A stretch of DNA of 26,837 nucleotides from positions 1-26,837 of the IMG/VR virus record IMGVR_UViG_3300031875_000004; one strand, given 5' to 3'. Made by a program: the position numbers and the translations under genes. This DNA comes from a virus. Each line of letters starts with the position of its first letter. Position 1 is the stretch's first letter. Positions 18,117 to 25,773 of the stretch are shown here, piece after piece. Below the pieces are notes generated by a model, which was not told the origin of the DNA, did no database searches, and saw only the letters and a program-made list of their open reading frames with translations.

Positions 18117-18515
18117 CTAAGAAATCCAGTTCATCCAATGCCTCTTCAAAGGAAGGTATTTTCCCCCCTGTGATGTGCTCATCAGCTTCTTGTATGATGC
18201 CCGAAAATGTTCGCAAGGCAATGATTCTTTCTGCGTATATTGCTGCAAAGTAAGCTCCTTCCTGACGAGTATACGTGACCAATTAGCCCTCAACAGCAAT
18301 TTCGTCCCCCCGACGCAACTCCTTGCATCCCTCAACCATCGTGTCCCACACGACCACATCAAAGATTTCGGGCTTCTTGCGCCAGCCTTTTTTTTGGTGC
18401 GCATGACCGTTACCACTTGCATGCGGATATTACAGTAGGGGGTATCTTCGAGTTTGCGAAAAACGGGCTCCCGTAGGATTGCTCCACGCAACCAAACCTT
18501 GTTAACGTCTCTCAT
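18085..18515 (-). pseudogene. Third SSB-like OB-fold gene, split by frameshift and stop
   Basis: The start ATG at 18515 overlaps the stop of ssb. The first frame gives VNKVWLRGAILREPVFRKLE and CNIRMQVVTVMRTKKK, the start of an SSB OB fold. At eight As (A AAA AAG in frame, near 18394-18401) the homology moves to the -1 frame: PEIFDVVVWDTMVEGCKEL then RRGDEIAVEG. There a TAA interrupts, and the same frame resumes with LVTYTRQEGAYFAAIYAERI, again SSB-like, and runs to 18085 as an acidic helical tail. So two lesions, or one programmed frameshift plus one stop, divide it. A decayed gene is most likely; a shortened frameshift product remains possible. The single-frame 132-residue translation is not meaningful after the A run. 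Confidence 0.72.
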
Positions 18516-18943
18516 GGCTCAAAAGAGCTCTCTTCTCCACTGGCAAATATCTCATCGGGCGTAATCACGATGGGGGAATCTTCTAAGGCCGCAAAATCAC
18601 CCTCATCGATTGCGGCCCTTTCTTTCTCTACGGTAATAGATTCCTCTGCGACTTTCCTCGTCTCGGCACTCAGGTTTCTCACCCTATTCGCCAGAAGGCG
18701 CCATTGCGTTTCCCGGCTACTTTTTTTCACATACACTGAAATGCGTCCATGAATAAGCACGAGGTCGCCCGTCTGTGCGGCGCTCAGTTTTTCGGCTTCC
18801 GGACCAAATGCGACCACATTCATATATACTTTGCCCGTGCTCTCGTAAGTTACAAGGTGACACACGCTGTATGCCAGAGAACTCTTGGCATACCGCAATA
18901 TAGGTTTCTTGCCAATTTTTCCCACCACGACCGCAACGTTCAT
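18512..18943 (-). CDS. ssb: Single-stranded DNA-binding protein (second copy)
   Basis: The ATG at 18943 has GGGGTG about 6 nt upstream; the GTG at 18964 is less likely. The 143-residue product opens with MNVAVVVGKIGKKPILRYAK, the OB-fold start of SSB, and continues with KVYMNVVAFGPEAEKLSAAQ and GDLVLIHGRISVYVKKS, matching the strands around the DNA-binding cleft. The C-terminal third is acidic and disordered but does not end in the canonical DDIPF tip. It probably coats ssDNA during replication or annealing. It lies after a tandem repeat array and is coupled to a second, broken OB-fold gene. Confidence 0.88.
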   Translation of the reverse strand: MNVAVVVGKIGKKPILRYAKSSLAYSVCHLVTYESTGKVYMNVVAFGPEAEKLSAAQTGDLVLIHGRISVYVKKSSRETQWRLLANRVRNLSAETRKVAEESITVEKERAAIDEGDFAALEDSPIVITPDEIFASGEESSFEP

Positions 18944-18960
18944 TGTGTTCACCCCAACCT

Positions 18961-19134
18961 TCACCGCTCGGTTTTTTCATAACCCAGGCTCGCTGTTGTG
19001 AGTCGGTATACTCTGGGATAACGACTCACTCGCTCATCCTTGCTAGTTTTCTCACCATGAATGGCTCGCCCATCGACACTGGTTTCCTCATGAGCAGCGG
19101 CTCGCTCCAGCAACTTGGTTTTCTCCACTCTCAT
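18961..19134 (-). CDS. Possible small protein with 12-residue repeats
   Basis: Inside the tandem repeats is an open frame of 57 residues from ATG at 19134. It reads as imperfect 12-residue units: EKTKLLERAAAH, EETSVDGRAIHG, EKTSKDERVSRY, then a diverged unit and a final EKTER. Some codons differ synonymously between units (ACC/ACT, AGT/AGC, GAG/GAA), which hints at coding. Against it, there is no clear ribosome binding site, and the two upstream repeat copies are spaced 37 bp and fall in other frames. The frame begins on the stop of a mini-frame (TGATG). It may be noncoding repeat DNA. Confidence 0.3.
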   Translation of the reverse strand: MRVEKTKLLERAAAHEETSVDGRAIHGEKTSKDERVSRYPRVYRLTTASLGYEKTER

Positions 19135-19180
19135 CAGCTCGCTCTTTTTTTACTGGTTGCCTCCATCACCACGGCTCGCT
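18987..19180 (-). repeat. Tandem 36-37-bp direct repeats before ssb
   Basis: On the minus strand the octamer AGCGAGCC (variants GGCGAGCC, AGCGAGCT, AGCGAGTG) occurs at plus positions 19173, 19136, 19099, 19063, 19027 and 18987. The spacing is 37, 37, 36, 36 and 40 bp. Four of the copies also share a second block, GAGAAAACCAG-like, about 15-17 nt further on. A related GAAAAAACC lies after the last copy. The array fills the gap between the IS110-like gene and ssb. Confidence 0.85.
18998..19029 (-). repeat. Inverted repeat within the tandem array
   Basis: Perfect 8-bp arms GTGAGTCG and CGACTCAC are separated by 16 nt. They replace the second conserved block of the fifth repeat unit, so this unit is distinct. 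No T-run follows on the minus strand, so it is not a standard terminator; an operator or an RNA hairpin in the ssb leader is possible. Confidence 0.6.
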
Positions 19181-19187
19181 CTTTGAT

Positions 19188-20054
19188 TCATCTTTCCCCT
19201 TTCTTTCCTTCTTCGAAATAAGAAGGGTCGTAAATATGTGTGTGGTTCAGATATTCGGCTACGTAGGGCTTCCGAATAGGCAGCCCCAAGGCTTCTCGCC
19301 ACACCCGCCACAGGCATGCCAGAAACATCTTTTCCATTTTCCGCAAAGCACGATAATGAACCACGATGGGGCGCAATTCTGGATGAAGCTTTTCCTGCCG
19401 TTCCTTTTCCCGGTAATATATTTCGGAGAATTTGCCTTTGGTGCGCAGAAACGATACGGCCAGAAGATACATGCTGGACTTTAGCCTCGAGCAGTAGTGT
19501 CGCTTCTCCCCCTTCGTCACCCTCTCGGCCTTACCGTCTACCACTCCCAGGCCAGCAAAGCGCCACAGAGCAGATATCGTATCCGCCTTTTCGATATCAA
19601 TCACGCTCAAAATCCGCGCCCCCAGCATCGGTCCTACCCCTTTGATGTTCTTGAGCCACGGCCACACCGGATGATAGTGCAGATACACACGAGCACGCTC
19701 CACGCAATTGAGCTCCATCTGCAATAATGTTTTGTGCCACTCCTGCAGCATCAGAAAAGCCAGTGTTTCCTCATCTTTTCCCCTGCGCACAGCGGCAATT
19801 CGGTTTCCGATAGCGACCCGGAGCTTCTGAATTTGTAAGTACGAGTCCACAATGAAACGAATGTCTGTGCCGTTGGTCGTTGCTATGATTCCGCTTCCCT
19901 TAGCTTCTTCTTCACATTCTTCCTCCGGTTCTTCTTCGGGCTCATCATACCACTCATCCACAAACTCACAATCCTTCGGATGAATCTTCTGGGCACAGGA
20001 ATAATTCACATCATCCCAAAACATACAGTCCCAACAACTACGAGGATACTTCAT
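19188..20054 (-). CDS. Orphan IS110-like Tnp-domain protein
   Basis: The ATG at 20054 is preferred because GGGGAG lies upstream; the ATG nine codons earlier has none. The product is 288 residues. The N-terminus is Cys-rich (CWDCMFWDD, then two more Cys) followed by an acidic stretch. Residues about 60-130 are helical. The C-terminal half has the Transposase_20 (IS116/IS110/IS902) pattern: KGVGPMLGARILSVIDIE, SALWRFAGLGVVDGKAER, LRPIVVHYRALRKMEKMFL. The DEDD RuvC-like domain required by IS110 transposases is absent, and no insertion-sequence ends are visible. It is therefore unlikely to be a complete transposase. A nucleic-acid-binding role in the phage is inferred; the function is unknown. 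Confidence 0.75.
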   Translation of the reverse strand: MKYPRSCWDCMFWDDVNYSCAQKIHPKDCEFVDEWYDEPEEEPEEECEEEAKGSGIIATTNGTDIRFIVDSYLQIQKLRVAIGNRIAAVRRGKDEETLAFLMLQEWHKTLLQMELNCVERARVYLHYHPVWPWLKNIKGVGPMLGARILSVIDIEKADTISALWRFAGLGVVDGKAERVTKGEKRHYCSRLKSSMYLLAVSFLRTKGKFSEIYYREKERQEKLHPELRPIVVHYRALRKMEKMFLACLWRVWREALGLPIRKPYVAEYLNHTHIYDPSYFEEGKKGER

Positions 20055-20385
20055 GCCCTTCTTCTCCCCTTTCCCCTTCATGGATGCATTGCATCATTCT
20101 ACAAAAATCAGTAAAGGTCAAAATCACCAAGGGCTCAGAACGGTGTCCGCCAAGAATCACCCCGGAAAGACCTTGGGAAACAGCCTTGTTAACCCATTCG
20201 TGCACGGTTGCTAGACCAAGCTTGCGATATTTGCATTCGAAACGGAGCCCTGCAATCTCTACGTCACCCTTCTCTGGAGTAGCTCCAGAGAGCAGAATGC
20301 GCCGTGATGGTAGCCCAAGGTTCCTGGCTAGATTCACAACCCGATATTCGAAGTTTTTCCCTCTCTGGACCTCGCTTCGAGACAT
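20038..20385 (-). CDS. PDDEXK nuclease, Hjc-like resolvase candidate
   Basis: The 115-residue product has the compact layout of Hjc/VRR-type nucleases: a helix with Glu13 in GKNFEYRVVNLARNLGLPS, then RRILLSGATPEKGDVEIAG with Asp41, then LRFECKYRKLG with Glu50 and Lys52. This gives the E-D-ExK active site, and the Ser-Gly before the Asp also matches Hjc. It probably cuts branched DNA, acting with the annealing protein and SSB in replication or before packaging. The ATG has GGAAGG upstream. The last residues (EGERGEEGHEVSS) overlap the next gene. Confidence 0.8.
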   Translation of the reverse strand: MSRSEVQRGKNFEYRVVNLARNLGLPSRRILLSGATPEKGDVEIAGLRFECKYRKLGLATVHEWVNKAVSQGLSGVILGGHRSEPLVILTFTDFCRMMQCIHEGERGEEGHEVSS

Positions 20386-20387
20386 AT

Positions 20388-21080
20388 CTATCGCCTTCCG
20401 AAAAACTCACGCAACCAAGAGATGGCCTCATCAACATTACCAGCCACGTGGGTTGCCTCGGCGGTTGTCCATGTGGAAGGACTCTGGCTTACCACTACAA
20501 CGGGAATACCGAGACGGTATCGAGCGTAGCCGAACTCTAACCATGTTCCCGAGGTAATCGTATCCCCAGTGATGATGAGCACGGCATCGCAATCCTGCAA
20601 AAGTTTCTTGTCTTGTTCGACAATCTGTTTCTCAGAGAGACCCAAGCGTTTTACGAATTCACCGTCAACAGAGCAATCGAGAAGCGTGGTGGGAATGCCG
20701 TCTGGGAAGTGACGTAGGAAGGGGTCCACCGGTTGGAATCCAGCTTGGGTAAGCAACATTTTTACCCAAGTTCTCTCACGTTTCACCTCAACCACCTTGC
20801 GACCCGTCAAGGCACCGGAAACATAAATTTGCACCTGGTCATCACGGTCGTCCCTCATCCTCCTGATGTATTTCATGATGTGTCGTATGCACGAATTGAC
20901 GCAGTGGGAGGAGGGAATGTCCTTCCCCCAGTCCCGAAGAGCGTAATTCTTCGCTCCCTCCTCGTACAGCTTGGCCAGACAAACGAGGGCAAATGGTATA
21001 AGGTCAAGCCGTCCCTTTCCATCCAAACTCTCGCGCTCCGCTCCATCATGGTATTCAATAACTTCGTTTTCGCCCCTCAT
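20388..21080 (-). CDS. dNTP pyrophosphohydrolase-like / deoxyribosyltransferase-like fusion
   Basis: The ATG at 21080 has GGGGGGTG 7 nt upstream and is preferred to the GTG at 21101. The product is 230 residues. Residues 18-80 resemble the dATP/dGTP diphosphohydrolase N-terminal domain (DUF5664): DGKGRLDLIPFALVCLAKLY, EGAKNYALRDWGK, CIRHIMKYI. The usual last helix (HLAHALWN-like) is missing; the chain passes directly into VQIYVSGALTG at 83. That begins a Rossmann-like nucleoside 2-deoxyribosyltransferase/DUF4406-type domain, with DCDAVLIITGD and SGTWLEFGYA, where Glu182 matches the catalytic Glu. It probably edits the nucleotide pool. The fusion and the shortened first domain are unusual. Confidence 0.75.
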   Translation of the reverse strand: MRGENEVIEYHDGAERESLDGKGRLDLIPFALVCLAKLYEEGAKNYALRDWGKDIPSSHCVNSCIRHIMKYIRRMRDDRDDQVQIYVSGALTGRKVVEVKRERTWVKMLLTQAGFQPVDPFLRHFPDGIPTTLLDCSVDGEFVKRLGLSEKQIVEQDKKLLQDCDAVLIITGDTITSGTWLEFGYARYRLGIPVVVVSQSPSTWTTAEATHVAGNVDEAISWLREFFGRR

Positions 21081-21101
21081 GGTATGCACCCCCCAACACA
21101 C

Positions 21102-22403: not shown

Positions 22404-22736
22404 CTACGCAAAACTCACCATCCACCAGTCAATCCCAACCGCCTGAATCTCCTCCTTACTCAGCACCTTCCCTTCCGGTATCCGGTCCCGGAGAACCGCG
22501 CACACCACACAGTCTTCGGGAGAAAGAATATAGCGCTCGCGGTTATAAGCGACCGTGACACCCAGAAGCTCAGAGAGAAGCCGAGCGGTAGCTTCGTGAC
22601 CCACCACACTGTAGTATTCATTACAGGAAACGAGATCCCTCACCATGTCGAGGTCGATCGGCGAAAAATCGAGCTCGTGAGAGCACCTCGGCAACATCTG
22701 CAATGAAAAAGCATTTGTCAGAACGATCCGACCCAC
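22404..22736 (-). CDS. acrIII-1: AcrIII-1-like viral ring nuclease (DUF1874)
   Basis: The 110-residue product matches DUF1874 (STIV B116-like) throughout: TNAFSLQML (7-15), VVGHEATARLLSELLG (44-59), NRERYILSPED (65-75), RDRIPEGKVLSKEEI (83-97). AcrIII-1, represented by SIRV1 gp29, degrades the cyclic tetra-adenylate messenger made by type III CRISPR complexes and so switches off Csx1/Csm6-type effectors. By my recollection of SIRV1 gp29 the important residues are Asn8, Ser11, Arg66, Arg85, His47 and Glu88. All occur here at the same numbers when the gene is read from the GTG at 22736; Gln81 is Val. That start has AGGGGGGTG upstream. It lies between an SSB-like gene and the clamp, so expression is early. 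Confidence 0.92.
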   Translation of the reverse strand: MGRIVLTNAFSLQMLPRCSHELDFSPIDLDMVRDLVSCNEYYSVVGHEATARLLSELLGVTVAYNRERYILSPEDCVVCAVLRDRIPEGKVLSKEEIQAVGIDWWMVSFA

Positions 22737-23122: not shown

Positions 23123-23145
23123 AGGATCACCTCCAACCTAAACAG

Positions 23146-23303
23146 TCCAAACACCAGTCCAAACACCTTTTTTTTGTGTGGTCCAAACACCACTCCAAAC
23201 AATACCAAAACAGTCCAAACAGGGTGGCAGAAGACGCTTGCCAGCTGAGTTTTTCGAAAGTCCAAACACTCCAAACAGTTTATACTCTATACTCCATCCA
23301 AAC
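23146..23303. repeat. TCCAAAC iterons, candidate replication origin
   Basis: The heptamer TCCAAAC occurs at 23146, 23158, 23182, 23194, 23214, 23261, 23270 and 23297, often as gtCCAAACacc. Several copies are 12 or 24 bp apart, close to helical phasing. An inverted copy lies at 23339, with TCTAAAC variants nearby. The array is noncoding, lies beside the replicative ATPase and an SSB gene, and is next to an AT-rich hairpin, as expected for an iteron origin. Confidence 0.7.
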
Positions 23304-24608: not shown

Positions 24609-24919
24609 GAGATTGCTGTTACCTCCTTCTTTTTGCTCTCCTTCTTTTTGCTTGGATGTGCAGGACCAGTAGGACCAGGTTTCTCCTGCATTCTTTTGGA
24701 AATGAGATACAGCAAGCGGTTTGTCTGCTTCTGTAGTGAAATAATTGTGTCCTGCGTTTCGCGCTCTCGTGTAATGCGCTCTTTGATTGCGTCTGGGTCT
24801 GGTCTATATCTCAGCCTTTCTTCTCTACGCACGTTCACAATTTTTTCCTCTGGGACTTCAAACCCCTGTTCTTCATAGAATTGCGCCCAGGTCTCCGATA
24901 CAGGAAAATCGATCTGCAC
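24551..24919 (-). CDS. Hypothetical coiled-coil protein between bet and helicase
   Basis: The GTG start has AAGGAGGTG 8 nt upstream. The 122-residue product begins with WAQFYEEQGFEVPEEKIVNV, followed by a charged helical region (about 45-78, ERETQDTIISLQKQTNRLLY) that should form a short coiled coil. It ends in a Pro/Gly (GPTGPAHP) and Lys-rich tail that overlaps the helicase gene. No catalytic motif or family is recognised. Its place suggests a helicase loader or accessory factor, but only position supports this. Confidence 0.65.
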   Translation of the reverse strand: MQIDFPVSETWAQFYEEQGFEVPEEKIVNVRREERLRYRPDPDAIKERITRERETQDTIISLQKQTNRLLYLISKRMQEKPGPTGPAHPSKKKESKKKEVTAISWKSSESPADILSGTEISF

Positions 24920-24939: not shown

Positions 24940-25773
24940 TCAAGACGGGGAGGTAGGATTCTTCCGCTCCTGAAGCTTATGCAACACTTCAGAGAGCTGT
25001 TCACGGGTGAACCCAGAAAAACTGGTTACACCGGCGATCTCGTGGGCCTCCTTGGTGGAGAAGCCCATGGCTTTCACCGAAGTCCAGAACCACGACCAAA
25101 CATCTTTTCCAGTTTCGTTCTTCGCCTTGGTCTCAGAGTTCTCTACCTTGGTCTCAGGGTTCTCCACCACGCCCCCCACATGGGGGCTCAGTTCCTCAGC
25201 ATTGATTCCCATTTCTTCTGCTGAGTAGAGTCCCTGGAAGTCTTCGGGGAATGCTTCTCGAAGAGCTTGCGAGAGAGCAACCTTGCGAATCATCGTCGCT
25301 TTCATAGTTGCCCACGCCCTCTGTGGCACCCCTTCCTTATTTTCCCTAGTGTACTCCTGCAGACTGACGGAAATCTTCAAGGGCTCCTGCCAGTCTTTGC
25401 GATATACCTTCGCCCACCCCCCGACCAGGTTCTCGCTATCTAATACCAGGGAACCTTCTCTTTCTACCAATGTTTCTCCGTCCTGCACGATTACTCCGGC
25501 CTGCCAACCCGCGCAGTTGGGGTTGGCAGCCGCCCTTCTTACAAAGACGTCTTTCCCGACTACGATGGTGGCGGGATACTTTTCGCTATATTTGATGAGA
25601 TATGCTTCCCTCAAAAATGGGTTTAGACGCTGGTATCGACATAGATTGATGAATAATACGATTTCTTCGTTGGTTACCTTGCTCCCATCCCCCGACACCA
25701 GGTATTTCTTGATGATTTCCGGAGAGAGTTGCACCTCTCCCCGGTCGGTTTCGTACTTCACAATTCCGTTCAT
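24940..25773 (-). CDS. bet: Single-strand annealing protein, Bet/RecT type
   Basis: The 277-residue protein matches the phage recombination protein Bet family: TNEEIVLFINLCRYQRLNPF (35-54), LIKYSEKYPATIVVGKDVFV, then WAKVYRKDWQEPLKISVSL and the conserved TMKATMIRKVALSQALREAF. The protein anneals complementary single strands during recombination and replication. The C-terminal part (about 195-277) is a linker with repeated ENPETK/ENSETK units and a small helical end. The ATG has GGAGGATAGCT upstream. No lambda-type exonuclease is in the window; the Hjc-like nuclease and SSBs are likely partners. Confidence 0.9.
   Translation of the reverse strand: MNGIVKYETDRGEVQLSPEIIKKYLVSGDGSKVTNEEIVLFINLCRYQRLNPFLREAYLIKYSEKYPATIVVGKDVFVRRAAANPNCAGWQAGVIVQDGETLVEREGSLVLDSENLVGGWAKVYRKDWQEPLKISVSLQEYTRENKEGVPQRAWATMKATMIRKVALSQALREAFPEDFQGLYSAEEMGINAEELSPHVGGVVENPETKVENSETKAKNETGKDVWSWFWTSVKAMGFSTKEAHEIAGVTSFSGFTREQLSEVLHKLQERKNPTSPS

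What the first reader, a model, noticed from the sequence alone, without database searches (positions are those of the whole stretch)
19188..20054. IS110-type Tnp domain without its RuvC partner, beside a repeat array
The protein keeps the coiled-coil and Transposase_20-like regions of IS110 recombinases but has a Cys-rich acidic N-terminus in place of the DEDD domain. There are no mobile-element ends, and it is embedded in a replication operon. IS110 enzymes use a bridge RNA encoded beside the gene. A structured repeat array lies directly downstream here, so an RNA partner for this protein is a speculative but testable idea.
Basis: inference. Interest (0 to 1): 0.52.

Follow-up and report, generated by a model that had tools for sequence, protein, structure and literature searches.

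The report
RNA-guided TIGR-Tas locus in a phage
The odd "transposase without its partner" is a phage copy of a recently described RNA-guided DNA-binding system (TIGR-Tas), and the repeats beside it look like its store of guide RNAs.

Summary
The 297-aa protein (19188-20081, minus) passes NCBI's TIGR-Tas model (188 bits, cut-off 100) and fails its IS110 model (16 bits, cut-off 140). Its predicted fold matches TasH and TasR (Z about 23) well above IS621 (Z 14.8). IS621's catalytic Ser aligns with Lys190. No nuclease domain was found, so it is a TasA-type (nuclease-less) member.

The array starts 6 nt after the stop codon, on the same strand. It alternates a 9-nt edge repeat (GAGCGAGCC) and a 9-nt loop repeat (GAGAAAACC), separated by 9-10-nt spacers: four intact units and two degraded ones. 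The edge core GCGAGCC recurs in the published Salicola CGphi29 TIGR array and in an unannotated array in Microcystis phage Mvi-JY20. Of 75 related loci, 70 have a repeat chain of four or more near the gene, against 3 of 72 control stretches.

No target was found. Unusual features are the Cys4 plus acidic N-terminus and the array lying between tas and ssb. This is a new member of a known kind; its biological role is open.

The parts
19188..20081 (-). tasA-like gene (TIGR-associated Nop-domain protein); likely start at 20081 or 20054
   Evidence: NF052498 187.9 bits; phrog_4285 E 2.8e-45; fold match to TasH/TasR Z about 23
19881..20081 (-). N-terminal extension aa 1-67: C16-x2-C19-x9-C29-x8-C38 followed by an acidic stretch; no known domain, low model confidence
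18970..19181 (-). TIGR array, edge GAGCGAGCC / loop GAGAAAACC, begins 6 nt after the tas stop codon
19145..19181 (-). unit 1: edge GAGCGAGCC, spacer A GTGGTGATG, loop GAGGCAACC, spacer B AGTAAAAAAA
19108..19144 (-). unit 2: edge GAGCGAGCT, spacer A GATGAGAGTG, loop GAGAAAACC, spacer B AAGTTGCTG
19072..19107 (-). unit 3: edge GAGCGAGCC, spacer A GCTGCTCAT, loop GAGGAAACC, spacer B AGTGTCGAT
19036..19071 (-). unit 4: edge GGGCGAGCC, spacer A ATTCATGGT, loop GAGAAAACT, spacer B AGCAAGGAT
18996..19035 (-). unit 5, degraded or modified: edge GAGCGAGTG (or, shifted 4 nt, GAGTGAGTC), loop-like GAGTATACC; holds a 12-bp inverted repeat (18998-19009 / 19018-19029)
18970..18995 (-). unit 6, partial: edge CAGCGAGCC, 8-nt spacer, loop GAAAAAACC; no following edge; just upstream of ssb
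18512..18964 (-). ssb gene directly downstream of the array (an ATG at about 18942 may be the true start)
   Evidence: PF00436 E 6.6e-7

Best explanation
This is a TIGR-Tas locus of the nuclease-less (TasA) type in a tailed phage. The Nop-domain protein is encoded on the same strand as the array just downstream. The array transcript is processed into about 36-nt guides (tigRNAs), each with spacer A and spacer B. A dimer of the protein holds one tigRNA, and the two spacers pair with opposite strands of an 18-19-bp DNA target (top strand: A, 0-2 bp, reverse complement of B). With no nuclease domain it would bind, unwind and bend the target, blocking transcription or replication, rather than cut it. 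The most likely use is against competing mobile DNA or host DNA rather than the phage's own genome. Shown here: family, predicted fold, array anatomy, co-orientation, absence of a recognised nuclease, absence of a self-target in this record. Inferred from published relatives: RNA processing, dimerisation, tandem-spacer targeting. Guess: the biological role.
For: NCBIfam NF052498 TIGR-Tas 187.9 bits vs cut-off 100. phmmer to TasR 9mty E 1.4e-25 and TasH 21kl E 3.1e-15. Predicted structure (mean pLDDT 83.4) matches TasH Z 23.1 over 224 residues and TasR Z 22.7 over 197. The array alternates two 9-nt repeats with 9-10-nt spacers, both repeats starting GAG and ending CC in most copies, as box D/box C should in edge and loop (rules from PMC12045711). 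The same edge core GCGAGCC is found in CGphi29 and Mvi-JY20 arrays. 70 of 75 related loci have a nearby chain of 4 or more copies vs 3 of 72 control stretches and 1 of 75 shuffled stretches. In the tree the window pairs with a nuclease-less relative outside the HNH group. No self-target with 3 or fewer mismatches.
Against: Only four intact units, fewer than the usual 5-15; the last two are degraded. No T-run terminator was found at the array end. The same repeat test found no array beside the gene in three of five named phages with relatives: Arthrobacter Talia1610, Mycobacterium Pinto, Gordonia Morrissey, so relatives of the protein do not always come with one. No natural target was found: unit 2 had 14 exact viral hits against 14 for a reversed-geometry control. 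A sister phage record (about 85% identical head proteins) lacks the gene, so it is accessory. Nothing was tested experimentally.
Confidence: 0.85

Rival explanations
1. A decayed IS110 transposase whose DEDD half was lost, beside unrelated repeats.
For: Pfam PF02371 match; fold relation to IS621, Z 14.8.
Against: IS110 equivalog 16 bits vs cut-off 140. Much closer to Tas proteins. Position of the catalytic Ser is K in the window, K/R in 43 of 49 aligned rows, S in 1 of 49. Adjacent arrays at most related loci. Intact reading frame.
Confidence: 0.03
2. TasA used as a regulator of the phage's own genes or replication: the array sits in the leader of ssb, and guide processing or guided binding tunes the replication operon.
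For: Array lies between tas and ssb on one strand; the partial unit 6 ends just before ssb. Replication-type neighbours.
Against: No tandem target with 3 or fewer mismatches in the 26.8-kb record outside the array; the record may be incomplete. Of the replication-side neighbour genes tested, only the helicase-like gene (5 loci), recT (2) and the RusA-like gene (1) had a match in the tas loci held, so the setting is not conserved.
Confidence: 0.2
3. The repeats are DNA sites (replication iterons or operators) bound by the protein or by a replication protein, with no RNA role.
For: Position in a replication operon; one 12-bp inverted repeat; no stable RNA fold over the whole array (z -0.72).
Against: Two distinct alternating repeats with variable spacers match TIGR anatomy and the published TIGR edge core; [quoted passage not shown]
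Confidence: 0.06

Closest known systems
TIGR-TasH of Salicola phage CGphi29 (SpTIGR)
   Same: Nop domain; array downstream on the same strand; edge core GCGAGCC; short repeats and 8-9-nt spacers
   Different: Has an N-terminal HNH nuclease; the window protein has a Cys4/acidic N-terminus instead; 29-31% identity
TIGR-TasA (e.g. Flavonifractor plautii FpTasA, PMC12045711)
   Same: Nop domain without nuclease, with a dual-repeat array
   Different: FpTasA sequence was not compared here; it is described as a solo Nop domain, whereas the window protein has about 67 extra N-terminal residues
TIGR-TasR (9mty)
   Same: Nop fold, Z 22.7 over 197 residues; phmmer E 1.4e-25
   Different: TasR has an N-terminal RuvC nuclease; the window protein has none
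IS110 family / IS621 with bridge RNA
   Same: Related coiled-coil and Tnp/Nop fold, Z 14.8
   Different: No DEDD domain, no catalytic Ser; the guide source is an array
TasA of Microcystis phage Mvi-JY20 (XAI95461.1, annotated hypothetical)
   Same: 39% identity, no nuclease-sized N-terminus, 36-nt array with edge ATGCGAGCC and loop ACGAAACCC right downstream
   Different: No Cys4 N-terminus; its array ends in a hairpin with a T-run
Box C/D snoRNP Nop5 / Prp31
   Same: Distant fold resemblance (Prp31 Z 8.9 over 160 residues; in the range where helical folds can match by chance)
   Different: Eukaryal/archaeal RNA-processing proteins with other partners and RNAs

Membership tests
TIGR-Tas | Nop-domain protein of the Tas clade | tested here: met
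   NF052498 above cut-off; fold match; tree with TasA/TasH relatives
TIGR-Tas | adjacent array of two alternating 8-12-nt repeats with about 9-nt spacers, about 36-nt unit | tested here: met
   9-nt repeats, 9-10-nt spacers, units of 36-37 nt for units 1-4
TIGR-Tas | box D/box C ends shared between edge and loop repeats | tested here: met
   Edge consensus GAGCGAGCC and loop consensus GAGAAAACC share GAG...CC; single copies deviate
TIGR-Tas | array ends in a truncated edge followed by a rho-independent terminator ('typically') | tested here: not met
   Only a hairpin without T-run; no terminator-like site in the array. The paper states this as typical, not as required
TIGR-Tas | processing to 36-nt tigRNAs and guided DNA binding | not testable with these tools
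   needs RNA-seq and a binding assay
TasA subtype | no HNH or RuvC nuclease domain | tested here: met
   Pfam on the whole protein gives only Transposase_20 above cut-off; N-terminal 54 aa no hit in Pfam or PHROGs
IS110 transposase | N-terminal DEDD RuvC-like domain (PF01548) | tested here: not met
   no hit; only about 67 residues before the Nop domain
IS110 transposase | catalytic Ser in the Tnp domain (S241 of IS621) | tested here: not met
   aligns with K190
IS110 transposase | bridge RNA and element ends | not tested
   no Rfam match in 18500-20700 up to E 1, but whether Rfam holds bridge RNAs was not checked; element ends not examined

The most novel reading that the evidence does not exclude
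The Cys4 plus acidic N-terminus is a metal-binding recruitment module, so this is an RNA-guided DNA-binding protein that brings a partner (for example the SSB or replication proteins encoded beside it) to guide-chosen sites instead of cutting them: a third kind of Tas effector arm besides HNH and RuvC. A separate TasA clade (L051, L065, L076) with CxxC...CxxC N-termini would be an independent case.
Probability: 0.15. Interest if true: 0.65.

Novelty: new member of a known kind. Interest (0 to 1): 0.4.

Why it matters
The TIGR-Tas paper leaves the role of nuclease-less TasA and the natural targets open. A compact phage locus with four intact guides, no nuclease and an unusual N-terminus is a convenient test case. 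It also shows that proteins annotated 'transposase' or 'hypothetical' in phage records, such as that of Mvi-JY20, can be unrecognised TIGR systems.

Tried and rejected
Targets. In the window itself the best A + reverse-complement(B) matches had 4 or more mismatches, no better than control geometries (two of the control orders printed there are the same sites read on the other strand). In IMG/VR, unit 3 gave 3 hits, unit 4 gave 2, and unit 2 (trimmed to 17 nt, gap 0-3) gave 14, the same as its reversed-geometry control (14); units 1, 5 and 6 were not scanned there. In the sister phage (27.5 kb searched, five units) one unit-2 match with 3 mismatches of 19 lies in what looks like coding sequence; I take it as chance. 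In 64 TerL-related loci there was no match at 2 or fewer mismatches in the expected geometry, and 3 in the reversed-order control. Across relatives, 517 units against 133 records gave 1 exact and 72 one-mismatch hits, against 6 and 62 (shuffled pairing) and 3 and 88 (reversed order): no signal. An earlier count was biased because it held loci fetched with window spacers; I dropped it.

N-terminus: no match in Pfam, PHROGs or phage tblastn, only chance-level PDB hits. Rfam: none. Near-identical phages in the GenBank set: none for 1800-26700. The single-protein scan of IMG/VR found no relative; the alignment query did. Plasmids: one weak hit, annotated as IS110. In the structure comparison, rows below Z about 13 were not interpreted, apart from naming Prp31.

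Survey caveats: the 75 loci include near-copies; 17 of 75 were set aside before the alignment and 48 of the remaining 58, plus the window, make up A3. For the cross-target count 11 near-copies, two poorly parsed loci (L012, L067) and L001 (a copy of the window) were left out. L067 is a low-complexity run beside a mis-picked ORF and some chains (L074, L078) may be other repeats, so a few of the 70 may be false. Loci below 4 copies were L012, L016, L042, L079, L080.

Full report
What was checked. Pfam Transposase_20 matches above its cut-off. The window is a whole 26,837-base virus record with tailed-phage genes: tape measure, major head protein, portal, TerL, RecT. Around the gene lie ssb, a RusA-like resolvase, a dGTP diphosphohydrolase/deoxyribosyltransferase fusion and a sliding clamp.

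Family. NCBIfam's TIGR-Tas model scores 187.9 bits (cut-off 100) over aa 74-262, whereas the IS110 model scores 16.1 (cut-off 140). PHROG 4285, labelled 'transposase', is the best phage family (E 2.8e-45). By sequence the solved relatives are TasR 9mty (E 1.4e-25) and TasH 21kl (E 3.1e-15). An AlphaFold2 model from 49 sequences has mean pLDDT 83.4, with blocks of about 88-98 over residues 71-290 and under 60 over the N-terminal 70. Foldseek's 11 matches at E 0.001 or better are all TasH or TasR chains. In the structural realignment TasH has Z 23.1 (224 residues, 3.2 A), TasR Z 22.7 (197, 2.2 A), IS621 Z 14.8 (180, 3.5 A).

Not IS110. In IS621 the Tnp-domain Ser241, followed by Gly242, is the catalytic nucleophile (PMC11208158, passages seen). 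In the profile alignment this Ser-Gly pair falls on Lys190-Gly191 of the window protein (a two-residue numbering offset of the solved chain is my inference). In the 49-row alignment that column is K or R in 43 and S in 1.

The array. On the minus strand, starting 6 nt after the tas stop codon, 9-nt edge repeats at 19181, 19144, 19107, 19071, 19035 and 18995 alternate with 9-nt loop repeats at 19163, 19125, 19089, 19053, 19013 and 18978 (each number is the 5' base, + strand coordinate). Units 1-4 are intact (36-37 nt). Unit 5 has about 4 extra nt and contains a 12-bp inverted repeat; unit 6 lacks a following edge and ends close to ssb. In PMC12045711 (I read the main text through the Discussion, two methods sections and the figure legends: plus an outline and a word search) TIGR units are edge, spacer A, loop, spacer B, with edge and loop sharing box D and box C ends; both hold here (GAG...CC). 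The target rule I used (A, 0-2 bp, reverse complement of B) is my derivation from that paper's 8-nt 3' overhang and 'C - 5' rule; the paper words the cut side in two ways, and I chose the one that gives the stated overhang.

Relatives. tblastn found relatives in 82 of 50,697 phage records, 76 of them named Mycobacterium. Of five named phages examined, two (Microcystis Mvi-JY20 and Salicola CGphi29, the published SpTIGR) have arrays with the same GCGAGCC edge core, and three (Talia1610, Pinto, Morrissey) showed none by the same test. An alignment query gave 72 IMG/VR loci (of 159 candidate stretches) and 3 genome loci (of 55). Within 1.5 kb of the gene, 70 of 75 loci hold a chain of 4 or more copies of an 8-mer at 33-44-nt spacing, against 3 of 72 control stretches from the same loci and 1 of 75 shuffled stretches. 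In a quick tree of 53 proteins the 16 HNH (TasH) rows form one group with 100% support; the window pairs with L007 (support 90) outside it, and L002 (Mvi-JY20) is next to the HNH group (support 91). L007 has a similar array that decays at one end, but upstream of its gene.

The N-terminus. Residues 1-67 carry C-x2-C-x9-C-x8-C and then an acidic run. Among the 49 aligned rows only the window, L051 and L065 have a CxxC before the Nop domain; L076 and L077 have one too. L051, L065 and L076 form their own supported clade away from the window, so the trait looks independent. 'Metal-binding' is inference from the Cys spacing; the word 'zinc' does not occur in the main text of the TIGR paper.

Targets and role. 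Own-genome, related-phage and IMG/VR searches gave no signal above controls (only units 2, 3 and 4 were scanned in IMG/VR, and only unit 2 had a control scan there). A sister phage record with about 85% identical portal and head protein lacks the gene (a record may be a fragment). The gene is therefore probably accessory and its guides probably point at foreign or host DNA, but this is inference from absence. The paper itself calls the functions of TasA less apparent and says genuine targets are difficult to identify.

Novelty. Library searches for 'TIGR-Tas', 'tigRNA', 'tandem interspaced guide RNA' and the Tas names returned the 2025 Science paper, one review devoted to it and other papers that mention the terms; I saw the listings only, apart from the Science paper. 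Whether this contig or Mvi-JY20 is in that paper's supplementary table could not be checked. I therefore file it as a new member of a known kind, with an unusual N-terminus.

Noticed in passing
L002:5666-5990 (Microcystis phage Mvi-JY20, PP438412.1): No repeat feature is annotated where a TIGR array of 9 edge copies follows a TasA annotated 'hypothetical protein' (XAI95461.1); it ends in a terminator-like hairpin with T-run.
   Followed up: partly
L076:993-2111 and following; L077:4941-6029 and following: Tas proteins with CxxC...CxxC N-termini and very long arrays (about 41 and 37 copies), with RecT- and helicase-like genes in the same loci.
   Followed up: partly
L048:2980-3933: TasH-like protein whose HNH motif looks degenerate by eye, possibly an inactivated nuclease.
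   Followed up: no
window 22404-22736 (-): STIV B116-like protein (PF08960, E 5.2e-19), a family named after an archaeal virus protein.
   Followed up: no
window 20388-21101 (-): Apparent fusion of dATP/dGTP diphosphohydrolase N-terminal domain and nucleoside 2-deoxyribosyltransferase.
   Followed up: no
window 23143-23222, 24623-24652, 25117-25168: Short tandem repeats of 9-12, 15 and 21 bp in the replication half of the record.
   Followed up: no
L005, L006, L004: Tas relatives in Mycobacterium, Gordonia and Arthrobacter phages without a detectable dual-repeat array nearby; they may use stem-loop arrays or none.
   Followed up: no
L008:4776-5699, L045:982-2091, L055:938-2449: Predicted ORF N-termini look like translated repeat arrays (repetitive peptides), so the starts picked there are likely wrong.
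   Followed up: no
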